In this document: piece by piece, positions 4,488 through 22,751 of the stretch | How positions within the stretch are numbered: position 1 is the first letter of the stretch | Layout of the letters: each line of letters opens with the position of its first letter | Source of the DNA: a virus | Reading direction: 5' to 3' (one strand) | IMG/VR virus record: IMGVR_UViG_3300045588_000067 | Location: 1-24,982 of that record | DNA length: 24,982 nt | Translations under genes and position numbers: made by a program | The notes under the pieces: model-generated | What the model was told of the DNA's origin: nothing | What the model saw: the letters and a program-made list of their open reading frames with translations, nothing else | The model's database searches: none

Positions 4488-5570
4488 TTATTCAGCAGTT
4501 GCGGTATAACGAAGTAAGCCATTAGAACCAGCTAAGTCGTCATAAGTACCATAAGCATCAGTAGGAACTACATAAACGCCTGCATTGGCTGACAATCTTA
4601 ATAAGAATTTATCCTCACAAGTATCAAATTCAAACTTGGCATCATACATAAGATTTGGAATTACTGTATCTGGAATTGTAAACATTGTAGCTGCTCCAAA
4701 AGTACCTTCAAAAGCATCAACATATTTATTCCAAGACATGAATTGCGCTGAACCTTCGCCCATAACGATCAATTCATTTGCACCAACAATAGTATTAACA
4801 GCTTTGTCGACAAAAAACTTATAATCTTGCGAAACGCTAGAGAAGTCAACACCGCTATTTTGTAAGCCGTATTTGTTTGTTCCTAGGTCGAATTTCTCAA
4901 AGTTGCCTTTACCAATAATGATAGGCGTTCCGTAAAGTTCATTTTCTGTGAAGTCAGAAAGTAAAGTTTGGAACCCTTCAAAAATTGGTGCACCTGCAAC
5001 AATACCAGTCGCACCTGCCGAGATTACAGGGATAGAAGTTGTTGTTGCTACTCCTGATCTTGCATTAATACCAAATGAATTCGATAATTTAGTTACTACA
5101 GCTTCGTTAATTTTAGTTCTTAGAGCGTTTTGAGCATTTAAGATTCTCTTTGTAACCTCTCTTAGATTATACGGAACAGGTAGTCCCGCTACGGCTGAAG
5201 AAGCTTCTTCACAGAATACTCTGATTTCATCCATACCCAAAGAAATATCTACCTGAACATATATATCCAATAGGGTATTATCTTCAATATATTCTACAGG
5301 GTCTCCAGCTACACAGTCAGCTGTAGTTTTTACCTTATCTTTAGTCATACGAGGCATATATTTAATGCGAGCCTCTTTTATGTGACCTTTATTATTTCTG
5401 CCATAAATATCAATTATTTCAGCAGATTGGTTTTCAGGTTGTGATAATGCTAAAGTAGCACCCACTGGAGTTTGTTTAGATTGAGGGTCATTAAGACCTA
5501 CAACCATTTCTAAACCTGTTAATATTGCAGGACATACACCTGCTACGTTGAAATCAATTCCTTGTGCCAT
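4488..5570 (-). CDS. major capsid protein (HK97-fold type)
   Basis: This 360-residue protein is directly downstream of the scaffold-like gene and upstream of a strong terminator, the usual setting of a major capsid gene. It has the expected size. Regions typical of capsid proteins of Bacteroidota phages include the N-terminal MAQGIDFNVAGVCPAIL, the acidic long-helix region LREVTKRILNAQNALRTKI (spine-helix-like, about residues 135-155) and a C-terminal beta-rich domain with TPIIIGKGNFEKF and LRLSANAGVYVV. No protease gene or delta-domain cleavage site is obvious. The ATG at 5570 is two bases from the scaffold stop, implying coupled expression. The assignment rests on context and general composition, so is strong but not proven. 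Confidence 0.85.
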   Translation of the reverse strand: MAQGIDFNVAGVCPAILTGLEMVVGLNDPQSKQTPVGATLALSQPENQSAEIIDIYGRNNKGHIKEARIKYMPRMTKDKVKTTADCVAGDPVEYIEDNTLLDIYVQVDISLGMDEIRVFCEEASSAVAGLPVPYNLREVTKRILNAQNALRTKINEAVVTKLSNSFGINARSGVATTTSIPVISAGATGIVAGAPIFEGFQTLLSDFTENELYGTPIIIGKGNFEKFDLGTNKYGLQNSGVDFSSVSQDYKFFVDKAVNTIVGANELIVMGEGSAQFMSWNKYVDAFEGTFGAATMFTIPDTVIPNLMYDAKFEFDTCEDKFLLRLSANAGVYVVPTDAYGTYDDLAGSNGLLRYTATAE

Positions 5571-5572
5571 AA

Positions 5573-6421
5573 TTATAATCCGTTTGATTGTTTAGCTTTT
5601 GCTAAGTTTTGAGCAAAAGTGTTATTAATTGGTTTTGTTGCTTGCGCTTGCGCTTGTTGAGTAACAACAGGAGGCGTAACGGTTGCAACGTGCAATAGAT
5701 TTTTTTCTGCAAGGGCTTTTTGAATACCTGTTTTGATGTCCAAATCGGTAACATCTAAACTTTCGTCGGATAGTCTTTTTAGCTTTAATTCGCCATTTTG
5801 TAAAACAACTTTAGCATCTTTAGATTTGAAGAAATCTGATACGGCTTGCTTAGCAAGCGTTCCACGATATTCTGAAGGGATACTTTCGCTTATTTTATGT
5901 TGGTTAATAAAACTTGACATGTTCCAATCAATCTCTTTATTAATAGATTGGTTTACTAGGTCAATGTTTGCCGATTTAAAGCTTTCAACTTGGTTTGATA
6001 ATTCTGAAATCTTTGATTTATATTCTAAGTCTAAAGCTTTCATTTTTTCATCATTGCCACTTGCTTTTGTTTTTGCTTCGATAAGCTTATTAGCTTCATC
6101 CGTTAATTTTGATATTCTTTTGAATGTTTTAGGTTCTGAAGCCTTTAGTTCGTTAATCTGTTCATCACTTAGTCCAAGCCCTTTGAAAGCCAAAGTCAGT
6201 TCTTTGTCTGTCGCATCGGCAAACTCACTAAAGAATTTTGCTTTGATGTCGGGGTTGTTCTTCGCTTCGTTGGCAGTTAGTAAACCACTTTCAAAAGTCT
6301 TAGCCAATTCTTCATCTATTTCAATAGTTGCAGTTAGGCTGATAAGTTGTTTCAATGATTCATTTGCTGAATCTGTTCCCACTTTCGTGGCTAAGGTTGT
6401 AATAAGTTCTCCTAATAACAT
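5573..6421 (-). CDS. scaffolding-like capsid assembly protein
   Basis: From the ATG at 6421 the protein has 282 residues. It is highly charged and helical, with coiled-coil character in the middle (TDEANKLIEAKTK to LSNQVESFKSANID) and a Gln/Ala-rich tail (VVTQQAQAQATKP), then AQNLAKAKQ. Low complexity, charge and position just before the capsid gene are the marks of scaffolding proteins, which guide procapsid assembly and leave. An in-frame ATG at 6487 would add MYIKKLISLLYLEK, but the promoter-like -7 box TATATTTG at 6459-6452 lies downstream of it. For that reason I prefer 6421. The gene is divergent from the island on the other strand, with which it shares a 91-base promoter region. Confidence 0.75.
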   Translation of the reverse strand: MLLGELITTLATKVGTDSANESLKQLISLTATIEIDEELAKTFESGLLTANEAKNNPDIKAKFFSEFADATDKELTLAFKGLGLSDEQINELKASEPKTFKRISKLTDEANKLIEAKTKASGNDEKMKALDLEYKSKISELSNQVESFKSANIDLVNQSINKEIDWNMSSFINQHKISESIPSEYRGTLAKQAVSDFFKSKDAKVVLQNGELKLKRLSDESLDVTDLDIKTGIQKALAEKNLLHVATVTPPVVTQQAQAQATKPINNTFAQNLAKAKQSNGL

Positions 6422-6451
6422 AAGGACAGTTTTTTGTTTAGTTAATTTTTC

Positions 6452-6496
6452 CAAATATAAAAGGGATATTAATTTTTTTATGTACATTTGTGCTAC
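6452..6496 (-). promoter_or_regulatory. GTAGCACAA-N28-TATATTTG promoter of scaffold-capsid genes
   Basis: GTAGCACAA (6496-6488, minus strand) is followed after 28 bases by TATATTTG (6459-6452), a full match to TAnnTTTG. The predicted transcript would start near 6447 and have a leader of about 26 bases before the ATG at 6421. No TTG-like -33 element is seen at the usual distance. The GTAGCACAA element overlaps the -7 box of the opposite promoter. Confidence 0.6.
6483..6490 (+). promoter_or_regulatory. -7 box of the plus-strand island promoter
   Basis: TACATTTG matches the Bacteroidota -7 consensus TAnnTTTG and lies 23 bases before the first ATG of the island (6513). It is the only full match in the intergenic region on this strand. 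A clear -33 TTG is not visible at 17-23 bases upstream. The box overlaps the GTAGCACAA element serving the opposite strand by three bases, so the two promoters probably cannot be fully occupied together. Confidence 0.5.
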
Positions 6497-6512: not shown

Positions 6513-6758
6513 ATGGGATATAAAAATAAAAATAATAGTACGGGTAAGAATAGGATTTGCTCATATATTAATGATGCTTCATTGCTATTCTTAGACGCTC
6601 AAAGTAAGGGGCTTACAAGATATAGAAGCGAAAGTGTTAGGCGAATGATTAACGAGCATATGCTTTGCGAAAATTTGACTGGAAAAACAGTTTGGCAAGT
6701 AATTAAAGATAATATTGAATTAAGAAAAGAAATTTTAAAATTAAAAAGATATGAATAA
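6513..6758 (+). CDS. small helical protein, first gene of island
   Basis: This 81-residue protein starts at the ATG at 6513. The frame stays open far upstream, but that part is antisense to the scaffold gene and lies before the promoter. The N-terminus is basic (MGYKNKNNSTGKNR). It is followed by a helical region (DASLLFLDAQSKG, RSESVRRMINEHM) and a charged helix at the C-terminus (NIELRKEILKLKRYE). It could be a small DNA-binding or regulatory protein, but no motif proves it. It overlaps the methyltransferase start by eight bases (ATGAATAA), so translation is probably coupled. Function unknown. Confidence 0.6.
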   Translation: MGYKNKNNSTGKNRICSYINDASLLFLDAQSKGLTRYRSESVRRMINEHMLCENLTGKTVWQVIKDNIELRKEILKLKRYE

Positions 6759-7272
6759 ACACCCTTGGAATAGCGAATATGCAGTAAGTTCACTTATTGC
6801 TGAATTGATTAAGATTAAATCATGCACTAATGTTTTGGAAATTGGCGTTTTTCAGGGACAAACAGGGCTTGCGATGATTAACGCATTGCCTAAAAATGGC
6901 TCTTACACGGCTCTTGACATTACAGAAGAAAACTATACCACTGATTTTAAAACTAAGCTAAAGAAACACACTTCTTTAATTGGTAATAGCTTGGATTTGT
7001 TGCATACATTACCCAATAGAAGCGTAGACTTAATATTTATCGATAGCGTTCATGAATATGCGCACCTTAGCAAAGAGTTCAAAATATGTGAGAATATCAT
7101 TAAGCAAAATGGATTGATTGTACTACATGATTCTATCTTGTTTGTTGGCGTTGCTCAATTTGTGAAGGAGTTGAAAAATAATAAAGGATTTGAAATCTTG
7201 ACTTTAGAAACTCCAGAGGAGGGCGACCGGACCCCTAGTGGCTTAACAATTATTAAATGCTTATATCCGTAA
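6751..7272 (+). CDS. class I SAM-dependent methyltransferase (Methyltransf_24-like)
   Basis: In this 173-residue protein SAM motif I is VLEIGVFQGQTG (residues 28-39). An acidic residue ends the second strand (ALDITEE, D56). VDLIFIDSVHEYAHLSKEF (92-110) and GLIVLHDS (121-128) complete the pattern. The 'FIDs.HeY......D/E......L...G.ivlHD' arrangement is that of Methyltransf_24 and cephalosporin-hydroxylase-like O-methyltransferases, which often act on sugars or small phenolics near glycan loci. The length is short but complete for the core fold. It sits in the island with a second, FkbM-type methyltransferase. Methylation of host or phage glycan is inferred from that pairing; the substrate is unknown. 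The next gene begins two bases after the stop. Confidence 0.8.
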   Translation: MNKHPWNSEYAVSSLIAELIKIKSCTNVLEIGVFQGQTGLAMINALPKNGSYTALDITEENYTTDFKTKLKKHTSLIGNSLDLLHTLPNRSVDLIFIDSVHEYAHLSKEFKICENIIKQNGLIVLHDSILFVGVAQFVKELKNNKGFEILTLETPEEGDRTPSGLTIIKCLYP

Positions 7273-7274
7273 TT

Positions 7275-7649
7275 ATGATAGAACTAATAAAAGGCAATAC
7301 CTATAATATAAAATTATCAGGACACGATTTAGGTAATTTAAAATTTAATAATACTATTTATTATGGAGACCATAATTCATATTCATATTTGTCATTTGAA
7401 GGATTATTACAAATTCAATTAAATGAAATAAATTTATATGAGATTAAATTAGTTGAAGAATCTGATTATATTGATAGTTGGAATTTAAAAACAGGTGGAA
7501 CATATCTTATTGGAGCAAAAAAAGAAATAGCCAAATATTATACAGTAGTTGGTAAATATATTGATGGATATATTTTAATGGATGAAGAAAAAATATTATC
7601 TAAACGGTTAAAAGTATCATTTGTAAATTATAGAGTATTTAAAGATTAA
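7275..7649 (+). CDS. hypothetical island protein, strongly AT-rich gene
   Basis: This protein has 124 residues from the ATG at 7275, chosen because it follows the preceding stop by two bases. An earlier in-frame ATG overlaps the methyltransferase. The protein is rich in Tyr, Ile, Asn and Lys, with many short beta-strand-like segments (MIELIKGNTYNIKLSG, YDGYILMDEE-type turns). It has no signal peptide, membrane segment or catalytic motif that I can recognise. The gene is visibly more AT-rich than the structural genes, in line with separate acquisition. Function unknown. Coupling to its neighbours puts it in the same transcript as the Imm-like gene that follows four bases later. Confidence 0.6.
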   Translation: MIELIKGNTYNIKLSGHDLGNLKFNNTIYYGDHNSYSYLSFEGLLQIQLNEINLYEIKLVEESDYIDSWNLKTGGTYLIGAKKEIAKYYTVVGKYIDGYILMDEEKILSKRLKVSFVNYRVFKD

Positions 7650-7653
7650 AATT

Positions 7654-7815
7654 ATGTTCTATTTATTGTTAATATTCTTGTACTTCGTGCCGTCTATGGT
7701 GGCGTACGGTAAACAACAATTCAATCAAATTGTTGTATTAAATCTTTTTTTAGGGTGGACTGGTATCGGGTGGGTAGCTAGTTTAGTATGGGCTTTAAGC
7801 AACGTAAAAGAATGA
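7654..7815 (+). CDS. superinfection immunity protein, Imm-like
   Basis: This 53-residue membrane protein resembles the Imm_superinfect family (Pfam PF14373, named after T4 Imm). Phages of that family make such proteins to stop DNA of a later phage from entering the already infected cell. The signature is plain: a first hydrophobic segment ending in YFVPSMVAY (residues 10-18), a short polar turn with KQQFNQ, then NLFLGWTGIGWVASLVWAL (30-48). The 'YF.P...A......ivvLNLfLGWT.iGWv.aLvWAl' order is diagnostic. Two transmembrane helices are expected, both ends on the same side. It begins four bases after the previous stop and its TGA overlaps the next ATG (ATGA). The family match is from recall of the motif and is strong. 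Confidence 0.88.
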   Translation: MFYLLLIFLYFVPSMVAYGKQQFNQIVVLNLFLGWTGIGWVASLVWALSNVKE

Positions 7816-8021
7816 TAATAATAAAAATAATAGCACTTATAATAGTGTGTTTTCTCGGGTCTTATGCAACATATTATTTCAATGTAGAAGAATATGATAC
7901 AATGTTGTTTAAATTGTCAATGATATTACTTGGTAGTACAATGGCTTTAATCATTACAATTATGTTATCTTGTATGTTTGTATTGTTCAAATTATTGTTT
8001 ATAAATTTTATTCTTAACTAA
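7812..8021 (+). CDS. small two-helix membrane protein
   Basis: This protein has 69 residues from the ATG at 7812, which overlaps the stop of the Imm-like gene by four bases. An ATG at 7788 in the same frame lies inside the Imm-like gene and is less likely. Two hydrophobic helices are clear: IIIKIIALIIVCFLGSYATYY near the N-terminus, and a long C-terminal stretch beginning MILLGSTMALIITIML. A short acidic loop with NVEEYDT joins them. No family recognised. Its coupling to the Imm-like gene suggests a partner in the membrane, possibly a second superinfection-exclusion factor. A holin-like role is an alternative but is less consistent with the early, separate transcript. Confidence 0.65.
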   Translation: MIIIKIIALIIVCFLGSYATYYFNVEEYDTMLFKLSMILLGSTMALIITIMLSCMFVLFKLLFINFILN

Positions 8022-8031
8022 TCCAAAAGTA

Positions 8032-8670
8032 ATGAGAAAACAAACTTTAAAAGATGGTACGTTTATATACACTCACGACAAAGGCGAGTATATAAGCGAC
8101 GTAATTGAGCAAACAGGGTGGTACTATGAGCCTAAGACAATCGACTATATTAAGAACCTTAATCTAAAAGATTGCAATATTCTTGATATTGGTGCCAATA
8201 TTGGCAATCATAGTCATGCCATGCAAAAGTTTAGTGATAATTGTCAGATTGGGTCATTTGAACCATATCAAAAAAACTTTGATATACTTAAAAAAAATGC
8301 TAGGTTTTCTTACAACAATTTTGTGACTAATAAAAATGATGAAAAAACATATAGTATTGATCCAGTTTGGGGAGGTGCCAATTTAGGCTATATTACATCA
8401 AGTAAAGATGGCGAAAAAGTTAATAATACATTTATTGATTACTATGAACTTGATAATATAAGCCTAATTAAAATTGACATCGAAGGTCACGAATTAGAAG
8501 CGTTGAAAGGGGCTTTTAATACGATTAAAAAAAGTAAGCCTTGCATCATTGCCGAACACCACACCAACGAAGAACACCTTCAAGTAATGGACTACCTTAA
8601 ACAATTTGGTTATTACTTAGCCACTATAATAGAAGAGGATAATTTAAACTACGTTTATAAACCTATTTAA
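8032..8670 (+). CDS. FkbM family methyltransferase
   Basis: This 212-residue protein has the hallmarks of FkbM methyltransferases. They are ILDIGANIGNHSHAM (SAM motif I, about residues 50-64), FEPYQKNF (76-83, the acidic end of strand two), and LIKIDIEGHELEALKGA (145-161, the catalytic-side signature of the family). FkbM enzymes transfer methyl groups to hydroxyls of sugars or polyketides and are common in glycan loci. The gene is the last of the island and runs 27 bases into the end of the convergent MuF-like gene. A methylated surface or virion glycan as substrate is inferred. A long perfect inverted repeat begins 14 bases past its stop. Confidence 0.88.
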   Translation: MRKQTLKDGTFIYTHDKGEYISDVIEQTGWYYEPKTIDYIKNLNLKDCNILDIGANIGNHSHAMQKFSDNCQIGSFEPYQKNFDILKKNARFSYNNFVTNKNDEKTYSIDPVWGGANLGYITSSKDGEKVNNTFIDYYELDNISLIKIDIEGHELEALKGAFNTIKKSKPCIIAEHHTNEEHLQVMDYLKQFGYYLATIIEEDNLNYVYKPI

Positions 8671-9543
8671 GTCAATCTTAGGCACTATCTTTTCACTTAC
8701 AGGTATAATCTGATGGTTGCATTGCCATCCACCCCTGTAAGTGAAAATAGTAGTCTTATTGGTTCCTGCAATCATTCCACCTCCTTTGTGAAGCTTCGTT
8801 TTGCAACTGTTCCAAAGTGAAGGCGTTTCTCCCCAATGTTCAACCTCTGTAACGTGAAAATATTTATCAACACGCTCCAAACAAAAGCACCTAGAACTTG
8901 TTTTTCTACCCCCTTGATACTTATACCATTTTAAGCCTAAGTCATCGCTTACGGTTTTAATATAATTCGCAGAATATTGGTTTAAAGAGTCCGTAGCAAT
9001 CTGTTTAACATTCTTCATTAAGTACCCTAAATTCTCTTTATCTCCTATAATCTTTACTTTTAAATCTTGTATTAGTTCAGTTAGATTTGAACCGCTTGTA
9101 ACTGACTTACTAAGGTAGTCAGATATAGGATTGATGATGTCATTTGATACACCAGCACCTAGCAAGCTTTCAGTTGTAATGCTTACCGAGTTATTCAATA
9201 TTGCTTTGAACAGTTCGCCTTTACCGTTAAAATCTGAAACTATGGTACTGAAATAACTATCAATTAATGTCTTTGTTTCTTCAAAACTATTAAGGTAGGC
9301 ATTTACGTCTTGCTTATAATCGTCATTTAATATAATGGCGTTTAGTTTTGATTTTACTTTTTGAATCTGTTTAAGGTTTTCGACACTTGTTTTAATGTTG
9401 CCATTTGCAGTTTGAAGCTTTGATAATTCAATACTTAATTCATTGAATATAGCTTTCTCAATTGATGGGATAGATTTCTCTACACTATCAATTGAGTTTT
9501 GAATACTGTCGAAAATCTGACTTATTAATTCGTCTTGATTCAT
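8644..9543 (-). CDS. MuF-like minor head (head morphogenesis) protein
   Basis: This 299-residue protein follows the portal directly, as MuF/SPP1 gp7-type minor head proteins do. A long helical N-terminal region leads to a C-terminal domain. That domain contains SSRCFCLERVDKYF (Cys 219 and 221) and, after GGGMIAGTNKTTIFTYRG, the ending GGWQCNHQIIP (W273, C275, H277, P280). The 'R..C......, G.W.C.H...P' pattern is characteristic of the MuF-type domain, in which Cys and His residues probably bind metal. Such proteins bind the portal or DNA in the head. Its start overlaps the portal stop by one base, and its 3' end overlaps the island's FkbM gene by 27 bases. Confidence 0.82.
   Translation of the reverse strand: MNQDELISQIFDSIQNSIDSVEKSIPSIEKAIFNELSIELSKLQTANGNIKTSVENLKQIQKVKSKLNAIILNDDYKQDVNAYLNSFEETKTLIDSYFSTIVSDFNGKGELFKAILNNSVSITTESLLGAGVSNDIINPISDYLSKSVTSGSNLTELIQDLKVKIIGDKENLGYLMKNVKQIATDSLNQYSANYIKTVSDDLGLKWYKYQGGRKTSSRCFCLERVDKYFHVTEVEHWGETPSLWNSCKTKLHKGGGMIAGTNKTTIFTYRGGWQCNHQIIPVSEKIVPKIDLNRFINVV
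8684..8751. repeat. 14-bp perfect inverted repeat at island boundary
   Basis: TTTTCACTTACAGG (8690-8703) and CCTGTAAGTGAAAA (8734-8747) are exact complements. ACTA (8684-8687) and TAGT (8748-8751) extend the stem past a two-base bulge. The loop holds a smaller stem, GATGG with CCATC. It lies within the last codons of the MuF-like gene, just beyond the stop of the plus-strand island. No T-run follows on either strand, so it is not a classical intrinsic terminator. Confidence 0.85.
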
Positions 9544-11522
9544 TATTTAATCTTTTCTTGCGTTGCCCTTAAGTCAATCGGATTACCTAATAATTTACGT
9601 GCCGTCACATCATCAAAGCCGTAAATCTCGCCTAACATAATAATTGCACTTTCATATTGGGTTGTGCCTGCACTTACTGATTGTTGAATTTCAATCAATC
9701 CTTGCACACCACCTACCGAGCCTTTTAATTTTGCTTTGGCTTCCGCTTCTATGTCGTTTGGTACGTCTAGTCCATTTAATGGGTTTGTTGCTTGTGTTGG
9801 TAGTTTATTGGCGTTGATGTACTCATTTGCGTACGTGTTCATTAAAGCTTTTTTCTCGCTTAGTTCCCAATTTGCAAAGTCTTTATTCTCGCTAAACGCA
9901 CGTTCTACAAATGTGTTAATAAATGAATGAATAGTTAATGTTTCAGCATTAAATGGTGATATGGCGTTCATCGTTAATATATCGTCCGTGGTCATTCCAC
10001 GAAGCGCATCTAATAAGATTATGTTTTGTTGGTATGCCATTTCTTTTGGGCTACCTTCGTATTTTTTACTTATGTAGTCCATTTCCATGGATTCAATAAT
10101 TGAACTACTGATACCGCTTTGCGTTGCTTTTCCTATTTGTTCTTCAATTACCGAAGTAGTGATAATATCAAAATCATTAGGTATATTAATACTTGGCAAT
10201 TGCTCATTAAGAAGAACCTCATTTGATTCTAGCAACTCATTATACCTTAACTTGTTTATTGTCTTAATGATAAACGGTAAATAACGCCCAAAAACATCAC
10301 TTGATATATTGCTAAGAAATTGATGAGTTTGGTCGTAGTCGTAAGCCTTAGAAACTCCGCTTTGATCCGTTGGACTTTCTGCAAGAAATTCCATATTGAC
10401 AGCGCCTAAACCTGACTTAATTAAGTTCTTAATATCTTGACTTAGAAATTCAACTGGCTTTAAATCTTTCTCAACATACTTAACGGGCGCCCATTGTGGT
10501 ATGGCTGAATCCTCGCCACTCATTGCAGGGCGCACCTTGGTAACGCCAAAAGGCGAACCACTACTAAAACCATCTCCGCCACAACTTGTACATGATGATG
10601 TTGTATTTCTTCCAAATGAATTTACCCTGCTAATATTACCCGTTCCGTTGCAACTTGTACATTCATTTTGTGTGAATTCTACTCGTTCAGGGTAAAGGTG
10701 TTGCTTAATGGTAACATTCTTGTCAATGTTTTCTAGTAAAGCTTGGTCAAAGTCGGGGATAATACCAGCAATCCAAGATTCATAGTAAATATCATCATCT
10801 TCGCTTGTCAATACTCCCCCATTTTCAATGCAAGGCACGAAGCCAAGATTATGTGCGTATAATAGAGTAGTTACATACTTTTCTTTGACATGGTCACGTT
10901 CTAATAGATAGTAATTAACAGTATCAACTACTATCCATTCATTTTTCTCTTGTTCAATAATTAATAGGTCGTCGTCAAAGTATTTTACCTTAGTGATTGA
11001 AAAACTATAAGGGATGGGCTTAATATATTCGTTCGTTGGTTTGTCTTTATATTCCTCTAAATAGTCGTCGTCTAGCACATATTGAGGCGCCATCACTACA
11101 ATACCATTTGAATCAGTTAAGTAGGGCTTAATCTGAAAATTAAAAAACCATTGAATCAAACTGTTATATTTCGGGAACTGCTCAAAAAGATAAGTATAAA
11201 GCGTTTCAGAATCTTTTATTTTAGGGCTGTTTTTTTCACTAGCCGTGATAATTAAGTCCCTAGCTTTTTGAATCTTGGCTATTGAGTTTTGAATCTTTTT
11301 GTAAGGTGCTTTTGTGATTGCCCTATAATTGTCTTTTTTATACTTTACCGCCCACTCTGGCTCACTTGGTTGGTACGTTACCATCATGTCAAGTGCATCG
11401 TCTACTTTGCCATCTGAATGTCTTTTAAGACTGCGGTATTCTTTTACCTTAATTTCTTTCAGTTCCTTATCGTGGTCTTTCTCGATGTACTTTTCAATAA
11501 ATGCTTTTGTTCCAACTTCCAT
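9543..11522 (-). CDS. portal protein with a DnaJ-type zinc motif insert
   Basis: This 659-residue protein has the size, composition and place (just before the MuF-like gene) of a portal protein, the dodecameric DNA channel at the head vertex. Portal-like features include the polar helical N-terminus, the central region SWIAGIIPDFDQALLENIDK (stem/wing) and the acidic helical C-terminal part with SPKEMAYQQNIILLDALRG. Unusually, residues 288-318 hold two CxxCxGxG units, CTSCNGTG and CTSCGGDG, separated by a Ser/Asn/Arg-rich linker, as in the zinc-binding domain of DnaJ. Four Cys suffice for one zinc. The gene starts two bases after the glycosyltransferase stop. Portal identity rests on context, length and general pattern. 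Confidence 0.8.
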   Translation of the reverse strand: MEVGTKAFIEKYIEKDHDKELKEIKVKEYRSLKRHSDGKVDDALDMMVTYQPSEPEWAVKYKKDNYRAITKAPYKKIQNSIAKIQKARDLIITASEKNSPKIKDSETLYTYLFEQFPKYNSLIQWFFNFQIKPYLTDSNGIVVMAPQYVLDDDYLEEYKDKPTNEYIKPIPYSFSITKVKYFDDDLLIIEQEKNEWIVVDTVNYYLLERDHVKEKYVTTLLYAHNLGFVPCIENGGVLTSEDDDIYYESWIAGIIPDFDQALLENIDKNVTIKQHLYPERVEFTQNECTSCNGTGNISRVNSFGRNTTSSCTSCGGDGFSSGSPFGVTKVRPAMSGEDSAIPQWAPVKYVEKDLKPVEFLSQDIKNLIKSGLGAVNMEFLAESPTDQSGVSKAYDYDQTHQFLSNISSDVFGRYLPFIIKTINKLRYNELLESNEVLLNEQLPSINIPNDFDIITTSVIEEQIGKATQSGISSSIIESMEMDYISKKYEGSPKEMAYQQNIILLDALRGMTTDDILTMNAISPFNAETLTIHSFINTFVERAFSENKDFANWELSEKKALMNTYANEYINANKLPTQATNPLNGLDVPNDIEAEAKAKLKGSVGGVQGLIEIQQSVSAGTTQYESAIIMLGEIYGFDDVTARKLLGNPIDLRATQEKIK

Positions 11523-11524
11523 GG

Positions 11525-12445
11525 TTAATATTTTACACGTTCTTTAAGATAGTCCCTTTTGTCAATCCATAAAAACGGATTCTTTACATTTTGATGTTGT
11601 GCATAATTCCATTTAACATGATCATTATACAAGTCTTTCAATCCCTTCGACATGATATGTCCTGCCATGCTAATAAAAAAATAATTCTTTTCTATTAAAG
11701 CCCTTTCGGTAGGTTTTACACCTCTTTTTTTGCCTTCATCAACAATCTCGCTCATAGGGTAAAAAAATATATCTTTATACGGATTCTCAACCTTGAAATT
11801 TAGATTTAACAAACTTAAACTAAAAGCTAATTCATCGGGCATACTATCCGCCCAATCTCTGAATTGAAAATCCCTTGTAATGAATAAGTCTTTAGCACGT
11901 GCAAAAATTTGTTCGGCTTCTTTTGACTTTTTAAAATACAGAAATGAACTTTGCAAGTGATAGTAGTAGGCATCTTTTTTTAATTTAAAATACTTGCGTA
12001 AATCTCTTACTGTTTCCCCTTCCTTAAACCAAAAATTACTATTGTCGCTATCAACTGGGTAGTGTGCATTTGGGTGGTATAAGGTAAATCCAAAATTCAC
12101 GGCTTTGTAAGTATTGAATAAATCATTTACTTTTTTGTTCTTAATCCAAATCGAATCACTATCAATATACACAGTTTCATCAAATGGGCTTAAATCGTAA
12201 ATCATGGTTTTTGCCAATGGAATTTCGACTTTACCATTAATGGTGTAATCTTTAGGGGTAATCTCTATGAAGTGCGTGAAGTATTTTTTTTCAAAGATAT
12301 TAAACTTATCTTTTACCCCTTCGTTGCTTACTAATGCAATTTGAGCATCAGGATTTGATACCCTAATGCTCATTGCAAGATTGAAAGCCATTCGCCTATA
12401 ATTATCGTGACCTAATGCCACTATAATGATGCCTTTATTTTCCAT
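11525..12445 (-). CDS. glycosyltransferase, GT-A fold
   Basis: This 306-residue protein has the layout of a nucleotide-sugar glycosyltransferase of the GT-A type. The N-terminus GIIIVALGHDNYRRMAFNLAMSIR has a strand-turn-helix start like glycogenin/GT8-related enzymes. YIDSDSIWI (residues 93-101) gives the DxD metal site at D95 and D97, in the expected place near residue 95. A later SSFLYFKKS and DELAFSLSL (the acceptor-side acidic DE) fit the same fold. It lies between the tail tube and portal genes on the late transcript, so it is made with virion proteins. Glycosylation of a capsid or tail protein, or of a host polysaccharide, is possible. The substrate cannot be read from sequence. Confidence 0.8.
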   Translation of the reverse strand: MENKGIIIVALGHDNYRRMAFNLAMSIRVSNPDAQIALVSNEGVKDKFNIFEKKYFTHFIEITPKDYTINGKVEIPLAKTMIYDLSPFDETVYIDSDSIWIKNKKVNDLFNTYKAVNFGFTLYHPNAHYPVDSDNSNFWFKEGETVRDLRKYFKLKKDAYYYHLQSSFLYFKKSKEAEQIFARAKDLFITRDFQFRDWADSMPDELAFSLSLLNLNFKVENPYKDIFFYPMSEIVDEGKKRGVKPTERALIEKNYFFISMAGHIMSKGLKDLYNDHVKWNYAQHQNVKNPFLWIDKRDYLKERVKY

Positions 12446-15190: not shown

Positions 15191-17410
15191 CTACTCTACA
15201 TATTCATCAACTACATAAGGGCACTCAACATAAATAAGGTCGCATTGTGGCTCATTGCCGTACAACTTAATTAAATCAAAGTTCGCCATGCCTTGTACTG
15301 GCATAAATGTAACCATTTTAATGTAGCCCCTATGTTCAATTGTGCTACCTTTGCCAACCGAATAATACCCGTACTTATTATCAATCATGTAATTAAAGTT
15401 TGATAAACTCATAGGGTAGTCAAATTTAATGCTTATAGGCTCGTATATTGGCGAGTTAATAAGATTGTTCTCATCATCCCATGCCAAGTTTTGATTTTCT
15501 TTAAGCACCGCATTATTATATCTATCTGTACAATTACCTATTAATTGGCTTTCATATAGATAGTTGTTTTTGCCGTTGGTGAACTGCGCTGACTTGCCTG
15601 CAATCTTAGCGTAAGCGCCTGATATAATTTGATTCCAATTCAACATCATGCGCATAGGGGTAAGCCTTAGATTATAACCAGTTCCAGGGCTTAATATATT
15701 TTGCGTTGAAAAGTTTTCATTTCTTTCGGCTAGGTTCAATTCCGTCGCATATCCTGATACACTTTCAGTGCGTTTTGTGCATATTAAAAAATTATCGTCG
15801 TCAAATTTCCATGACGATGTACTTGTTTCTAGGTATTGCACACGTCTTGTAAACTCAATGGCGTAGTGGTCGGCTACGTACTTGCATACATTAACAAATT
15901 CACGCTTTACCGTTGTTATTGGTAGGCTGTAAGAATGATTAGTGGCAAAACCATCTAGTGTATTACTTTTGTCCGTGCCTTCCTCTGTACCTTCTTTTTC
16001 AAAACCAATCTTTACGGTATTGAAAACCCTGTTTTGATCTACTGATACATTGATTGATTTGATATTAGTAATGTCATTTATATTTGTTTCGTTGTAAAAA
16101 TAGCTTACAGGCTCAACCCTTATAATCTCGTTACCCCCATCATTTTCAAGTCCTAAGCCTAGACAATGAACTGCAGACAATGAGGAATATATATCTGTTA
16201 AGTTCGCTAGTATAGGCTTGTCAAAGCTTCGTATATTGAAACCGTTTGTCAGCGCCATGAATGAACCGCACCCGTTCGCACCGTACCCTAAATCTTTACG
16301 CCCCAAGAAATTACTTTTAAATGCTGTACGCTTATCTAGTGCATTTTGCGCCACACGTTCAAAACATTCATGTATCATGTATGTCTTTGCCGTGCTCGAT
16401 GGCGTTTCTGTTTCTGATTTAAAATAAATGTTTGCAGTATTAAAAAGTAGGTAAAAATATGATATACTTGATGTTGGAACAGAATAGTTGGCAATTACTA
16501 AGTAAATTTTAACAACATCATTTGCATTTAACGTTAATGATAAGGTTTCATTAATATCGAATAATACAGTTAGTGGAGATAGTGGATTTTGCGCCCCAAT
16601 ATCATAAATCGAATAAGGCGTGCCATTAATTGAGTATGTCCATTGAAGGTTATAGCTACGCCCTAATGCCGTAGTTATTGAATCCACAAATGAACCTTCA
16701 CATTCAAATATTAAATCATAAACACCATCATAAGCTGGTATAAATGTAGGTTCAATTAGTGCTATATCTGTTGTTATATTCTCAATTAGTTGCGCATTTA
16801 TTCCCGTGGTACTACTTATGCTTAAGTCATTGCTTTTTACATAAACAGGCATTGGCAAAAAATATGTTTGGCTTACATCAATATTGACAGTTTCAGCAAT
16901 CAAAGGAACGCTTTCGGTAACCGTATCAAATACGCTTGTTAGCACAATAGCTTTGCTGTGCATCGTCATAGTGTTAGGCAATAGTGGCGGTAGTGATTCA
17001 TCTGTAAGGTGTAAAACCTTGCTAAAATCAACTATCTTGTCACTATTATTCTTCATTAACATTGTATTGCTATCTTGTTCAATGTTAGTGATACATGAGC
17101 AAAAAATATTAAACCTATCTTGAAATCCTGCAAGGTTTACACGCCCTGTATAAAGTGTTTGATATTCGTATGAAGCATTGCACCTCTGCTCTATGCGTAT
17201 CTTTAAAAGGTACTCAATCCCGTAAGTATAGAACGCATTAGCAATAATTGTATATCCATCGTTTACAAACTCTAATTCGTCTGTGTAGCTTGTAAAAATG
17301 CCATGGTATTTATCATCTCTTGCGTAAGTAATCTTACACTTATCCCACCCTATCGGCTCATCAATAACCGTTTCAACCTCACCATCTATTAACGTGAATT
17401 TATACTCCAT
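15191..17410 (-). CDS. large distal-tail / tail-tip protein
   Basis: This 739-residue protein is directly downstream of the tape measure gene and overlaps its end by 11 bases. That is the usual place of the distal tail and tail-associated proteins. It starts YKFTLIDGEVETVIDEPIGWDKCKITY. Its N-terminal part has many beta strands (EYLLKIRIEQRC), suggesting an adaptor domain that joins the tube. The C-terminal part holds YYSVGKGSTIEHRGYIKM. No lysozyme, peptidase or glycosidase motif is evident. Tail-hub, tail-tip or baseplate role is inferred from position. The gene contains a promoter-like element near its end. Confidence 0.7.
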   Translation of the reverse strand: MEYKFTLIDGEVETVIDEPIGWDKCKITYARDDKYHGIFTSYTDELEFVNDGYTIIANAFYTYGIEYLLKIRIEQRCNASYEYQTLYTGRVNLAGFQDRFNIFCSCITNIEQDSNTMLMKNNSDKIVDFSKVLHLTDESLPPLLPNTMTMHSKAIVLTSVFDTVTESVPLIAETVNIDVSQTYFLPMPVYVKSNDLSISSTTGINAQLIENITTDIALIEPTFIPAYDGVYDLIFECEGSFVDSITTALGRSYNLQWTYSINGTPYSIYDIGAQNPLSPLTVLFDINETLSLTLNANDVVKIYLVIANYSVPTSSISYFYLLFNTANIYFKSETETPSSTAKTYMIHECFERVAQNALDKRTAFKSNFLGRKDLGYGANGCGSFMALTNGFNIRSFDKPILANLTDIYSSLSAVHCLGLGLENDGGNEIIRVEPVSYFYNETNINDITNIKSINVSVDQNRVFNTVKIGFEKEGTEEGTDKSNTLDGFATNHSYSLPITTVKREFVNVCKYVADHYAIEFTRRVQYLETSTSSWKFDDDNFLICTKRTESVSGYATELNLAERNENFSTQNILSPGTGYNLRLTPMRMMLNWNQIISGAYAKIAGKSAQFTNGKNNYLYESQLIGNCTDRYNNAVLKENQNLAWDDENNLINSPIYEPISIKFDYPMSLSNFNYMIDNKYGYYSVGKGSTIEHRGYIKMVTFMPVQGMANFDLIKLYGNEPQCDLIYVECPYVVDEYVE
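15304..15348 (-). promoter_or_regulatory. intragenic GTAGCACAA-N28-TACATTTA promoter-like site
   Basis: GTAGCACAA (15348-15340) and TACATTTA (15311-15304) lie 28 bases apart, the same spacing as before the scaffold gene. The second box matches TAnnTTTG except for its last base. It is inside the distal tail gene, about 115 bases before the start at 15189, and could lift expression of the later tail genes. The element also codes for the conserved Gly-Ser-Thr-Ile. Confidence 0.4.
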
Positions 17411-20075
17411 ATCGGTTGTTTAGTTTTTCTTGCTTTAAGTGTTCTGAATAAAGGAATGTTTTAAAACCATCTTTATCAATCGAAATGTGATTCTTTGGCA
17501 TACTTCGCAATTCTTTTGCAAGATGAGAAGTGTCTAGGTTTACATTGGACATTTTTTGTCCACTTATCATCATGTTAGCCAGTTCGGGGCTTAGTTCCTT
17601 ACGTCTTATGCTTTGTAGTAACGGCTTAAATTTGCTTGTTTCTTCTGCTGTCATAACGCTTTCGCCCTTCGATAACATGGCATGGATTTCGTCACTTGTT
17701 CCCGTTCCTTTTCCTTGTAAATCAATTACGCCCTTTGCAAATTTTGGAGTAGGTTGTGACGCTATCAAAGCTGTTTGTATTGCACCGCTTGCGATTACTA
17801 AAGGTACCATAAAAGGTGCGGTTAATGGAGTTTTCCAAGCACTTGCAATACCTTGGGCGGTATCAATAGCTACATTTATAAGCGCTATTTGTTTGTTTTG
17901 TTCAAACTGTTGTTTTCTTATCTTAGCCTCTGCAAGTTGATATTTCTTAGCAATAGCATCTTTTTTAGCTTGGTTATCTCCTGCAAGCTTTAACTCACGT
18001 TCCTCTTTGTCTTTAAGGTCGATAAGTTCTTGCTCGTTAACATTCGATTTGTATTGATAAACAGCATTAATGCCTTGCTTAACTACATCCATAGCTTGTT
18101 TAGCTATTTCTTCCCTATTTTTTTGATGTTCTTTATCATCCTCCTCTACCTCATCATTTGCATCTTTATTTAACTTTACTTTTTTCTCTGCTATTTTACG
18201 CTGTAATGCAATGTATTCGTCGGAATTCAAAACTAAAGCATTAAGCTTTTCTTCATCTGATTTAATTTGAGCCTTCAAAGAAAGTTTTTCAAACTCCTTT
18301 TCTATTTTCTTACGTTCTTCGAGTTTCTGCTTAACAGTTAAATTTTGATTGTCGTATAGGCTTATTAAAGCATTTGCTTTGTCAATTGCGATGCTGTCTT
18401 GCGTGATTGAATTTTGGCGGTCTAGTGTTTTCTTTAAATCATCTTCGTCTTTTTTGTGTTGATCGAATGTTGCTTTACTCCATTCCTCATTGGCTTTTTT
18501 TCTTGCTTCTAAATCATCCTTAGTTTGCTTTTCTATTTTCTTGCCAATTGTAATCACGTTTACAATCGTGCTTTCTTGGTCTTGCTTTTGTTTAGTGTTT
18601 AGGATTTTTGAATATTTATCATAAATATCAACCCTTTTGTCGTTGTATTTAGCCTCTATTTTTAGAATCTCAATTTCTTTTGCCCCTGCATTAACCGCCT
18701 TTTGTTTTGCGATTTGTTCCTCATGTTTAAGCAAATTTAAAGCGTCATCAACTATCTTTTTTTGCGCTGATTCCTGCGCTTTACGTTCTTTGTCGGTAAA
18801 TTCTTTGGTTGTTACCTCTTTTGATTTTAAATATTCTTCATATTGCCTCTTGAGTTCATCTTGTCTAAATTTACGCTCTTGTAAGTATGCTTGAGCCTCT
18901 TTAATAGCTATCTTCTTTTCTTTTGTTGCTCCAATTTCCGCCAAAGCTAATGATGCTTTATTGGCACTTTCAATAGTAGAAAGTTTTACATTAGCTACAT
19001 CCTCAAGGTTTTCTTTTGCCGATTTATAATCTTTATTATAAACTGATAACTTGTCCAAGTAAGCCTTTTCCATTGCTTGTTTTTCGTCTTGCTTGGACTT
19101 CTCTGATTCTTTTTTTATACTATCAAAATATGAAGTAATACTTTTTTGAGCAAAACTATTTGAAGCGATAGTGCTTTCTGATAGTTCTTGCTCTTTAGTT
19201 TTTAGTATTTCTGTTAAAAAAGTTATCCTCTCTGAAATAAAGCCAATAGCATCTCCAAAAATCTTTGAAGTATTATTTCCAATTGATATTAAAAACTTAT
19301 CCCATTTATCTCCAAGGTTTGAAATTTTGCCGCCTAGAGTTTCACTAATAGCGGCGGTTGAACCCATAACCCCATTTAAATCTCCAAGTCCTAGCAAGTA
19401 ATTTTTAATAGCTTCTTGCGTGTTCTTAACCTCGGTAGTTACCCCCTTAAACGTGTATTGAGTTGTTTCTCCTGTTTTCTTGGCTGTGATACCAAACTCT
19501 TTAAGCCTCTCATTCTCGCCCGTGAAAGCGTCAAGAGTTGCCTCTGTTAATTGGTCAATAGACTTGCCTGTACTATTGGCAATGTCGGCAAGCTTCATCA
19601 TTTCATTTTGTGAAAGCTTTAAACCTCTATTGGCAAATTTTATATAGGTGTCAGTAAGTTCCATTACCGAAAAATTTGTCTTAATGGCTACGTCTGAAAT
19701 TTGAGCCATAGCAATATCGGCTAAGTTCTGACTGCCTAGAGTGTTGGTTAATACCGCCCTATACTTCTGTACTTGGCTAGTAATATCTATTACAGTTTTA
19801 CCAAATGCCACTACCGAACCAATAGCGAAAGCACCTGCAATGGCGTTGCCTATGCCATCAAACGAGCCCCTAAACTTATCAATCGATTGTTTTGAGTTAT
19901 CAACGCCATCCTTTACCTTTTTACTACCCTCGGTGGCTTGCTTTCCTGTTTCAGTTAGTTCTTTTCCAGTCTTATCAATAGAGTTAGCAAGATTATTATA
20001 GTCTTGCGTTGCTTTCTTAACATCTGCGGTATCTACTACAAAAACGGTCTTAACTACTTTGATATCGGTTGCCAT
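17400..20075 (-). CDS. tail tape measure protein
   Basis: This 891-residue protein is the longest here. It fixes tail length and is ejected with the DNA. The N-terminus (MATDIKVVKTVFVVDTADVKKATQDYNNLANSID in pattern) is followed by a glycine/alanine-rich hydrophobic stretch (about 76-97). A long Lys/Glu-rich coiled-coil region occupies roughly residues 300-730. A second hydrophobic helix lies at 753-774 (APFMVPLVIASGAIQTALIASQ in pattern), then the C-terminal FAKGVIDLQGKGTGTSDEI..LSKGESVM. This last motif, ending in 'GE.V.t..E', is typical of tape measures. The ATG at 20075 follows the end of the predicted frameshift extension of the tail chaperone by two bases. Confidence 0.92.
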   Translation of the reverse strand: MATDIKVVKTVFVVDTADVKKATQDYNNLANSIDKTGKELTETGKQATEGSKKVKDGVDNSKQSIDKFRGSFDGIGNAIAGAFAIGSVVAFGKTVIDITSQVQKYRAVLTNTLGSQNLADIAMAQISDVAIKTNFSVMELTDTYIKFANRGLKLSQNEMMKLADIANSTGKSIDQLTEATLDAFTGENERLKEFGITAKKTGETTQYTFKGVTTEVKNTQEAIKNYLLGLGDLNGVMGSTAAISETLGGKISNLGDKWDKFLISIGNNTSKIFGDAIGFISERITFLTEILKTKEQELSESTIASNSFAQKSITSYFDSIKKESEKSKQDEKQAMEKAYLDKLSVYNKDYKSAKENLEDVANVKLSTIESANKASLALAEIGATKEKKIAIKEAQAYLQERKFRQDELKRQYEEYLKSKEVTTKEFTDKERKAQESAQKKIVDDALNLLKHEEQIAKQKAVNAGAKEIEILKIEAKYNDKRVDIYDKYSKILNTKQKQDQESTIVNVITIGKKIEKQTKDDLEARKKANEEWSKATFDQHKKDEDDLKKTLDRQNSITQDSIAIDKANALISLYDNQNLTVKQKLEERKKIEKEFEKLSLKAQIKSDEEKLNALVLNSDEYIALQRKIAEKKVKLNKDANDEVEEDDKEHQKNREEIAKQAMDVVKQGINAVYQYKSNVNEQELIDLKDKEERELKLAGDNQAKKDAIAKKYQLAEAKIRKQQFEQNKQIALINVAIDTAQGIASAWKTPLTAPFMVPLVIASGAIQTALIASQPTPKFAKGVIDLQGKGTGTSDEIHAMLSKGESVMTAEETSKFKPLLQSIRRKELSPELANMMISGQKMSNVNLDTSHLAKELRSMPKNHISIDKDGFKTFLYSEHLKQEKLNNRYGV

Positions 20076-21424: not shown

Positions 21425-21468
21425 TAAAAATATGCCTTATTGAATTACTTTATTGCCATTTGTGCTAC
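21425..21468 (-). promoter_or_regulatory. GTAGCACAA-N27-TATTTTTA promoter-like site
   Basis: GTAGCACAA (21468-21460) includes the TAG stop of the terminase gene. After 27 bases comes TATTTTTA (21432-21425), one mismatch from TAnnTTTG in its last base. The ATG at 21420 begins four bases later, again giving a leaderless or nearly leaderless transcript. The spacing equals that of the site at 4458. Confidence 0.55.
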
Positions 21469-22751
21469 AAGTGAAGTGACTTTGTGAAGTTGTAATGAAA
21501 TGTTGAATAGTAGTATCTCTGACAGTCCAAGTTGTGAGTTAGCTTACTGTCTGACTTATCTATACTATTATCCTCTAATACCTTTACATTCAAATTATCT
21601 TTGATTGAATAAACGCATTTAGGGTGGATTAAGCATTTTACGTGTTTCTCGAATATACTGTTGTAAAGTTCCCTAGACTTCTTATGTGAAGGGTTTGCCC
21701 TTGGCGTCTTAATTGCCGTAATAGGTAGGTTGAATTCACGCCTAATGATAGAGTACATAGAATCCAAAGCGCTTGTACTCTTTTCCCTTGCCCACCCCGA
21801 AGCATCTCCAGTAACGTATATTTGGCTCTGATAATAGTCTTTAGTTTTGATTAACTCAATTACCGAATATATTGAACTATCCTTTAGCCTTATCTCGTCT
21901 ATTTGGTAAATGAAATCGTGGGTATGTTGAAATACGGCACACGTTGCAGGGTTAACATTAAAGTCAAATGATAGGTACACAGGTAGCCCTTCTTGATATA
22001 CAGCTTCTTCGCTTACGTTTCTTGTAGGTTCAAAAGCATAGGCGAATAGGTTTTCATTTTCCCGTACCTCCCAATCTCCATTTACCATTCTTTCAAATAT
22101 TAATGAAGTTGTAGTTGCTCTTAATTCCTCAATTGCTGTTTCAGGGATATATGGATTATCGGTAATCTTTGAGGGTATATAAGCCCAATTTGATGGGAGC
22201 GTATTATCCTTCCATCTATCGTAAAACTTTTCTTTTACCCACCCCGTTGATGGGTTACACGTTGCCAATATTATTGGCTTTGGTTGATTTGGTATTAAGT
22301 GAGAATAAGAGAACACCCTACTATTAACAACATTGAAAGTATCTTCTTGGCATTCGTTTATTTCGTCAAATCCAGCACCATTTATCTCTAAACCTCTAAA
22401 CCTGTTTAGTTCCTTATCTGTATCATAGCTTTCTGCCATAAACATGATTTGAGAACCATTTTTATAATAAACAATATAATCTTGGTTATTGAACTTCTCA
22501 ATATAATGAGATATTCCCATGTGGTACAACTTAAAAAATGAAGGGATAAGCGTTTTTTTAAGTGTTGGTAAAGACTTTCTAATCATTACCCATTTACTGC
22601 CTTCGTGCTTCATTGCTAGGCTGTGCATCATCAAACATAGCCAAAAACTTTTACCTCCTCGGATGGCACCTCCGTACAGTATTATATTTTTATCCTGTTG
22701 GCAAGCTATACCTTTAGCTTCTATCTGTTTAGGTGTCGGTGTAATTACCAA
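21465..22751 (-). CDS. terL: terminase large subunit
   Basis: This 428-residue protein is the DNA-packaging motor ATPase and nuclease. The ATPase Walker A is GGAIRGGKS (residues 27-35) with the conserved GKS. Walker B is GAGFDEI (125-131) with D129 and E130. A coupling motif ATCNPS follows at 163-168. The RNase H-type nuclease has acidic residues in SFDFNV (D263) and VTGDASG (D316), with a third near LDCQRYYY. Size and motif order match Terminase_3/6-like proteins. The initiation codon appears to be TTG at 22751, overlapping the small terminase stop. No ATG or GTG occurs before the Walker A motif. Its end carries the GTAGCACAA element. Confidence 0.95.
   Translation of the reverse strand: MVITPTPKQIEAKGIACQQDKNIILYGGAIRGGKSFWLCLMMHSLAMKHEGSKWVMIRKSLPTLKKTLIPSFFKLYHMGISHYIEKFNNQDYIVYYKNGSQIMFMAESYDTDKELNRFRGLEINGAGFDEINECQEDTFNVVNSRVFSYSHLIPNQPKPIILATCNPSTGWVKEKFYDRWKDNTLPSNWAYIPSKITDNPYIPETAIEELRATTTSLIFERMVNGDWEVRENENLFAYAFEPTRNVSEEAVYQEGLPVYLSFDFNVNPATCAVFQHTHDFIYQIDEIRLKDSSIYSVIELIKTKDYYQSQIYVTGDASGWAREKSTSALDSMYSIIRREFNLPITAIKTPRANPSHKKSRELYNSIFEKHVKCLIHPKCVYSIKDNLNVKVLEDNSIDKSDSKLTHNLDCQRYYYSTFHYNFTKSLHL

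What the first reader, a model, noticed from the sequence alone, without database searches (positions are those of the whole stretch)
6513..8670. Opposite-strand cassette combining Imm-like immunity with two glycan-type methyltransferases
Six coupled genes interrupt the head module between the MuF-like and scaffold genes. An Imm-like membrane protein (PF14373-type) blocks entry of superinfecting DNA in known phages. Its membrane neighbour is unknown. FkbM and Methyltransf_24-like enzymes can modify surface sugars, changing receptors. Together they resemble a two-layer superinfection-exclusion moron: receptor change outside and DNA-entry block at the membrane. I know of no description of this exact combination.
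Basis: partly seen in the sequence, partly recalled or inferred. Interest (0 to 1): 0.75.

Follow-up and report, generated by a model that had tools for sequence, protein, structure and literature searches.

The report
Swappable glycan-methylation and immunity cassette in phages
A small set of genes for methylating sugars and for blocking second infections sits backwards inside the head-building genes of a group of uncultured phages, and one of its enzymes is swapped between distant phages and belongs, in other relatives, to a sugar-adding gene block beside the DNA portal gene.

Summary
Six tightly packed genes at 6513-8670 run against the head genes, and the PF14373, Methyltransf_24 and FkbM assignments pass curated cut-offs. 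Relatives carry an opposite-strand cassette at the same place (10 of 10 complete sites), with methyltransferase MT24 always present and the other genes varying. One outgroup has the site empty. MT24 alone was exchanged between phages whose other genes are only about 43% identical.

In 71 of 71 more distant relatives MT24 lies on the late strand between a GT8-fold glycosyltransferase and the portal gene; the window keeps that glycosyltransferase beside its portal. So MT24 looks like a glycan-decorating enzyme tied to the head module rather than a receptor-changing moron by origin. The empty-site outgroup and a second lineage also keep both methyltransferase types with glycan enzymes in the late region; the second has Imm beside them. 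No integrase or prophage was found.

Best reading: a modular cassette in which MT24 and FkbM O-methylate a phage-made glycan, more likely on the virion than on the host surface, while Imm gives superinfection immunity. Target, timing and joint action are inferred, not shown. A new variant of known kinds.

The parts
6513..6758 (+). c1: 81-aa first gene of the cassette, variable N-terminal and conserved C-terminal half; possibly a ribbon-helix-helix-like regulator (unproven)
   Evidence: Homologue in 9 of 10 complete sites; model helix-helix-helix with pLDDT 66.8; no Pfam regulator hit; PDB profile match to a solved antitoxin only at E 1.3
6751..7272 (+). MT24: class I SAM-dependent O-methyltransferase (Methyltransf_24 / Methyltransf_3)
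   Evidence: PF13578 3.3e-15, PF01596 1.8e-13; nearest solved relatives are O-methyltransferases; in 10 of 10 complete sites
7275..7649 (+). c3: 124-aa protein of unknown function (alternative start 7257)
   Evidence: No Pfam hit; a 36-aa match in L006; similar by eye to a 137-aa ORF in L024
7654..7815 (+). Imm: 53-aa two-helix membrane protein, PF14373 superinfection immunity family
   Evidence: PF14373 8.6e-15, phrog_1039 4.2e-14; two hydrophobic stretches; in 9 of 10 fetched clade records
7812..8021 (+). TM2: 69-aa membrane protein, unknown function (alternative start 7788)
   Evidence: Two long hydrophobic stretches; 46% identical homologue in L005
8032..8670 (+). FkbM-family methyltransferase (Methyltransf_21)
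   Evidence: PF05050 4.9e-18, TIGR01444 9e-18, solved FkbM relative 2py6 at 2.8e-7; in 7 of 10 fetched clade records
11525..12445 (-). GT8-fold glycosyltransferase next to the portal gene: the proposed partner of MT24
   Evidence: AlphaFold model pLDDT 83.4, pTM 0.86; Foldseek top hits glycogenin, UGGT, LgtC, best E 1.7e-9; D95 and D97 invariant in 35 sequences; homologue upstream of MT24 and portal in 71 of 71 distant relatives
9543..11522 (-). portal protein
   Evidence: phrog_7376 1.9e-20
8644..9543 (-). MuF-like head protein flanking the site
   Evidence: Position, and weak phrog_758 E 0.025; conserved in relatives
5573..6487 (-). scaffold-like protein flanking the site (true start probably near 6418)
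   Evidence: Relatives start at the inner ATG; weak phrog_581 E 0.0095

Best explanation
The site between the MuF-like and scaffold genes holds an exchangeable opposite-strand cassette in what looks like a virulent phage lineage. MT24 and FkbM are glycan O-methyltransferases that finish a glycan begun by the phage's own GT8-fold glycosyltransferase (11525-12445), which is made with the head proteins. The most likely acceptor is a virion protein, the less likely one a host surface glycan. Imm is a two-helix inner-membrane protein that makes the infected cell resist further DNA entry, as T4 Imm does. The small genes are variable cargo, and c1 may regulate the cassette. Shown by computation: the families, the shared site, the variable content, the empty-site outgroup, the single-gene exchange of MT24, and the head-operon block GT-MT24-portal in relatives. 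Inferred: substrates, virion as target, exclusion activity, and time of expression.
For: Family assignments. Same-site cassette with MT24 in 10 of 10 complete sites. Empty site in L211, about 70 bp between MuF stop and scaffold start. GT then MT24 then portal on one strand in 71 of 71 distant loci, GT-MT24 gap at most 150 bp in 70 and MT24-portal gap at most 150 bp in 65. GT8 fold and invariant DxD. The empty-site phage G051 carries PF01531, PF13578, PF03016, PF00535, PF05050 and a just-below-cut-off PF01755 between terminase and tape measure. G052 carries Imm, epimerase, PF13578, PF05050 then portal, plus a GDP-mannose dehydratase and a GT homologue. MT24 of L022/L023 and L024 is 90-94% identical while coat, scaffold, MuF, portal and GT are 38-44%; the matching tract is 519 nt at 86% over little more than the gene. 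No PF00589 in 10 and no PF00239 in 11 records; no portal relative in the genome collection.
Against: No acceptor is known. The cassette is on the opposite strand, so it need not be expressed late with the virion genes, which weakens the virion reading for the window's own clade. FkbM is missing from 3 of 10 complete sites, so it is not essential to whatever MT24 does. Pfam does not recognise the window's GT. Only 4 of 72 Imm loci outside the clade have an FkbM hit within about 4 kb with my narrow profiles, so Imm and glycan enzymes are not generally linked. c1 as a regulator is not confirmed.
Confidence: 0.5

Rival explanations
1. Two-layer superinfection exclusion: early expression of MT24 and FkbM methylates host surface glycans used as receptors, and Imm blocks DNA entry behind it.
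For: Imm with PF13578 and PF05050 enzymes also recurs beside the portal in L169/L155. Opposite strand and a TAnnTTTG element about 30 bp before c1 in the window, L022, L023 and L024 allow separate timing. A published study reads LPS genes in phages without integrase that way (PMC9723584, section 11).
Against: MT24 belongs to the late head strand in 71 of 71 distant relatives, where early receptor change is unlikely; 40 of these records searched have no PF14373. Passages of PMC11990801 note that receptor-glycan change for exclusion is common in temperate phages and possible in principle for virulent ones, but begin a caveat about the abundance of O-antigen. No prophage or integrase was found.
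Confidence: 0.22
2. Unlinked cargo island: the genes share a tolerated insertion point and transcript but no function; each is an independent moron.
For: Content and order vary: Imm absent in G001, FkbM absent in G003, G008 and G010, unrelated small ORFs throughout. MT24 moves alone.
Against: MT24 and Imm are kept together in 9 of 10 complete sites, and Imm plus both methyltransferase families recurs in a separate lineage.
Confidence: 0.2
3. DNA decoration: GT and methyltransferases modify hydroxymethylated phage DNA against restriction.
For: A thymidylate-synthase-family gene in G002, G006 and G007, a family that includes hydroxymethylases (recalled). Weak PHROG and PADLOC matches of MT24 to DNA methyltransferases.
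Against: 0 of 40 GT-MT24-portal records searched have PF00303 (many are fragments). Nearest solved relatives of MT24 are mostly small-molecule O-methyltransferases (one is a tRNA methyltransferase). The GT fold is GT8-like.
Confidence: 0.06

Closest known systems
T4 Imm / PF14373 superinfection immunity proteins (phrog_1039)
   Same: Window Imm passes the PF14373 cut-off over all 42 positions and has two hydrophobic helices.
   Different: Only 53 aa, in a cassette with glycan-type methyltransferases. Exclusion not tested. T4 Imm's role is stated in PMC7677548 (one passage seen).
Mycobacteriophage virion glycosylation (Che8, Corndog, Myrna; Freeman et al. 2023)
   Same: Phage-encoded glycosyltransferases proposed to decorate virion proteins.
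   Different: Here the GT is GT8-like and paired with methyltransferases, and no glycosylated virion is shown. Known to me through passages of PMC12363180 and PMC12691614; the original paper is not held.
Prophage O-antigen modification (GtrABS and seroconversion)
   Same: Phage genes that change a glycan and can block adsorption.
   Different: Those are prophage systems acting on LPS. Here no integrase or prophage was found, and MT24 is tied to head genes. Passages of PMC11990801 seen.
Opposite-strand bS21 gene in a conserved head region of large phages (PMC9723584)
   Same: A non-structural gene on the reverse strand within the terminase-capsid-portal region, in phages without detected integrase.
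   Different: A ribosomal protein gene, not a cassette. Abstract, passages and section 11 seen.
Glycan cluster of an uncultured 735-kb phage (LR756501)
   Same: Holds PF13578 and PF05050 methyltransferases related to the window's.
   Different: A large biosynthetic cluster with GDP-mannose dehydratase, aminotransferase and several GTs; no Imm seen among the 10 ORFs scanned there.

Membership tests
PF14373 superinfection immunity | Match above the curated cut-off | tested here: met
   54.8 bits against 27.9
PF14373 superinfection immunity | Small membrane protein with two hydrophobic helices | tested here: met
   Hydropathy stretches 1-20 and 26-42
PF14373 superinfection immunity | Blocks entry of superinfecting DNA | not testable with these tools
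   Needs infection experiments
FkbM methyltransferase | PF05050 and TIGR01444 above cut-off | tested here: met
Methyltransf_24 / O-methyltransferase | PF13578 and PF01596 above cut-off | tested here: met
Methyltransf_24 / O-methyltransferase | Acts on a sugar | not testable with these tools
   Context only
GT8 glycosyltransferase | GT8-like fold and DxD motif | tested here: met
GT8 glycosyltransferase | Pfam Glyco_transf_8 above cut-off | tested here: not met
   No match for the window protein; 16.2 bits against 24.3 for L028. It therefore works like, but is not filed as, GT8
Moron / accessory island | Extra genes at a defined site, absent in a relative, content variable | tested here: met
   Empty site in 1 outgroup record; variable content in 10 sites
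Moron / accessory island | Own promoter and expression from a prophage | tested here: inconclusive
   Partial promoter element only; no integrase or resolvase and no prophage found, but most records are fragments
Virion glycosylation system | Phage GT linked to structural genes | tested here: met
   71 of 71 distant loci, and beside the portal in the window
Virion glycosylation system | Glycan present on virion proteins | not testable with these tools
   Needs purified virions
Ribbon-helix-helix regulator (c1) | RHH family or fold match | tested here: inconclusive

The most novel reading that the evidence does not exclude
Virulent phages carry a switchable identity cassette. MT24 and FkbM alleles, swapped as single genes between distant phages, set the methylation pattern of a glycan on their own virions (or on the infected cell), and Imm is kept with them because both decide which phages may share a cell. 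The methyltransferase allele would then define a superinfection or serotype group.
Probability: 0.15. Interest if true: 0.8.

Novelty: new variant of a known kind. Interest (0 to 1): 0.52.

Why it matters
Head-linked glycosyltransferase and methyltransferase genes appear in a large group of uncultured phages, yet what phage glycan methylation does is open. The natural experiment is clean: one site, empty in an outgroup, filled with varying combinations elsewhere, with a single methyltransferase gene moving between phages that share little else. It makes two questions testable: whether these phages decorate their virions, and whether Imm and glycan modification act together.

Tried and rejected
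Prophage origin and host: a portal profile against genome contigs gave 22 pattern matches and no relative. The second scan, with MT24, gave 5 weak relatives at 24-28% identity in Gemmataceae, Limnoglobus, Rhodopila and Granulosicoccaceae MAGs, whose flanks I did not study. Flavobacterium as host is only suggested by a 61-residue portal C-terminus and a 160-residue match in named phages whose own head modules look different.

MT24 in named phages: none with the window protein. A distant homologue gave 7 records, all uncultured or metagenomic.

c1 as RHH: the sequence pattern is suggestive, but Pfam, PDB and fold comparison do not confirm it. The VIA-align 2 rows were Z 3.1 or lower and of unrelated proteins.

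Promoter: a TAnnTTTG element just before c1 in 4 of 10 upstream regions, with the full two-box form only in L024. The two-box pattern occurs 6 times in the window by itself, so it is not counted as evidence.

DNA modification: considered and thought unlikely.

Literature: searches listed no paper recognisable by title or abstract as describing Imm with Methyltransf_24 and FkbM in one phage cassette. The library lacks most subscription journals, so absence in print is not established.

Full report
WHAT IS THERE. The window is an uncultured virus record of 24,982 bases. Its structural genes run on the minus strand: terminase 21465-22751, tape measure 17400-20075, a glycosyltransferase-like protein 11525-12445, portal 9543-11522, MuF-like 8644-9543, scaffold-like 5573-6487, putative coat 4488-5570 ('coat' is by position, no family hit). 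Between the MuF-like and scaffold-like genes six + strand genes are packed at 6513-8670. Pfam confirms Imm (PF14373), MT24 (PF13578, PF01596) and FkbM (PF05050) above the curated cut-offs. c1, c3 and TM2 have no family. Pairwise dN/dS for c1, MT24, Imm and FkbM is 0.03-0.37 in 12 of 13 comparisons; in one, dS was saturated.

THE SITE IN CLOSE RELATIVES. Scans with the MuF-like, coat and MT24 proteins gave ten further IMG/VR records that carry a cassette, G001-G010. Counting the window, ten sites are complete across the cassette (G005 is cut by its contig end). All ten have the cassette on the strand opposite the head genes. MT24 is in 10 of 10. A c1 homologue is in 9 of 10; L024 has a 46-aa protein instead. 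Imm is in 9 of 10 (missing in G001). FkbM is in 7 of 10 (missing in G003, G008, G010). Family searches of the whole records agree: PF14373 in 9 of 10 and PF05050 in 7 of 10 of G001-G010, the cut G005 counted. Small ORFs and order vary; in G004 FkbM precedes a TM2-like gene. Three further records (L200, L201, L210) are cut before or inside the cassette. The cassette is therefore a stable, variable accessory locus.

THE EMPTY SITE. One outgroup, L211 (G051), has portal 37-39% and coat 30-37% identical to the clade. It has about 70 bp between the MuF stop and the scaffold start, with no cassette. It has no PF14373. It does carry a same-strand glycan island between terminase and tape measure: PF01531, PF13578, PF03016, PF00535 and PF05050 above cut-off, and PF01755 just below (terminase and tape measure there are named by eye). 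This is one record; a further scan with its portal found no second empty site.

WHERE MT24 BELONGS. The MT24 scan confirmed 152 places and kept the best 80. Of these, 71 (L025-L095) are not in the cassette clade. In 71 of 71 the order is GT, MT24, portal on one strand. The GT-MT24 gap is at most 150 bp in 70 and the MT24-portal gap at most 150 bp in 65. The MuF-like gene follows the portal in 65; in the other six it was not found after the portal, and L068 has it elsewhere. The GT is homologous to the window's 11525-12445 protein, which the cassette clade keeps next to its portal. L028 and L054 have two MT24 copies. In a tree of 78 MT24 proteins, cassette and portal-adjacent copies separate at 99/98 support, unrooted, so the direction of the move is not shown. 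MT24 is 34-43% identical between the two groups while the portal is 20-23%. Imm is in 0 of 40 and FkbM in 1 of 40 of the portal-adjacent records searched; 31 more were not searched.

WHAT THE GT IS. Pfam does not recognise it. A model from 35 homologues has pLDDT 83.4 and pTM 0.86. Foldseek's best PDB matches are glycogenin, UGGT and LgtC, with 393 matches at E <= 0.001, best E 1.7e-9, TM 0.53/0.63. D95 and D97 are invariant in all 35. It is a GT-A, GT8-like transferase by fold.

EXCHANGE. L022 and L023 against L024: MT24 90 and 94% identical, while coat 43, scaffold 38, MuF 41-43, portal 43, GT 42-44 and Imm 53. At DNA level the L023-L024 match is 519 nt at 86% over the gene and about 35 bp upstream. 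The window's MT24 allele is only 42% identical to theirs although its coat is 80% identical to that of L022 and L023. FkbM also varies out of step (window against L017: FkbM 67%, MT24 94%). Single genes of this cassette move between phages.

RECURRENCE ELSEWHERE. Among 80 Imm loci kept from a further scan (259 confirmed), 72 are outside the clade. Four of these (L154, L155, L168, L169) have FkbM nearby, and five (those four and L145) a MuF-like gene. In L169 the order is MuF-like, Imm (PF14373), epimerase (PF01370), an unknown protein, a DUF6492 protein, PF13578, PF05050, portal, all on one strand. The same phage has a GDP-mannose dehydratase and a GT homologue further upstream. L145 has Imm followed by a GT2-family protein. 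So Imm beside glycan enzymes in the head region is not unique, but neither is it the rule for Imm. In a 735-kb uncultured phage, relatives of both methyltransferases lie in a glycan cluster.

LIFESTYLE. No PF00589 integrase in 10 records and no PF00239 recombinase in 11. No portal relative in the genome collection by the patterns used. Two records of about 44 kb have ends that repeat imperfectly, so they may be near complete. A virulent lifestyle is likely but not proven.

MECHANISM. Shown: families, site, variability, exchange, and the GT-MT24-portal block. Inferred: that the methyltransferases finish a glycan started by the phage GT; that the acceptor is more likely a virion protein than a host receptor, because in the relatives MT24 sits in the head operon and because these phages seem virulent; and that Imm acts alone at the membrane.

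VERDICT. The two-layer exclusion model is unproven, and its receptor half is weakened by the head-operon home of MT24. It is a new variant of known kinds: PF14373 immunity plus head-linked phage glycan enzymes.

Noticed in passing
window 9543-11522: The portal protein carries a DnaJ-type CXXCXGXG-like cysteine cluster (PF00684 E 0.0017, below cut-off); cysteines there are invariant across 11 diverse portals: possibly a zinc-binding insertion in a portal.
   Followed up: no
L221 4280-8665 (G051): A same-strand island of GT11, Methyltransf_24, GT47, GT2, FkbM and a GT25-like gene between terminase and tape measure.
   Followed up: partly
L222 2181-18651 (G052): A GDP-mannose dehydratase and, before the portal, an epimerase, two methyltransferases and GT-like genes suggest a phage-encoded GDP-sugar pathway, perhaps GDP-fucose.
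   Followed up: partly
L118 8527-13791 (LR756501): A 1755-aa protein combining hexapeptide repeats, Methyltransf_24 and GT2 domains in an uncultured 735-kb phage.
   Followed up: no
L028 6908-8031 and L054 6926-8025: Tandem duplicated MT24 genes before the portal.
   Followed up: no
L008 215-833 and L005 11107-11253: Repeated small coiled-coil-like ORFs with the shared end LKDTILKLIKP at the MuF side of the cassette.
   Followed up: no
L109 13052-15331 (G006): Thymidylate synthase family and C5 cytosine methylase genes in a close relative.
   Followed up: partly
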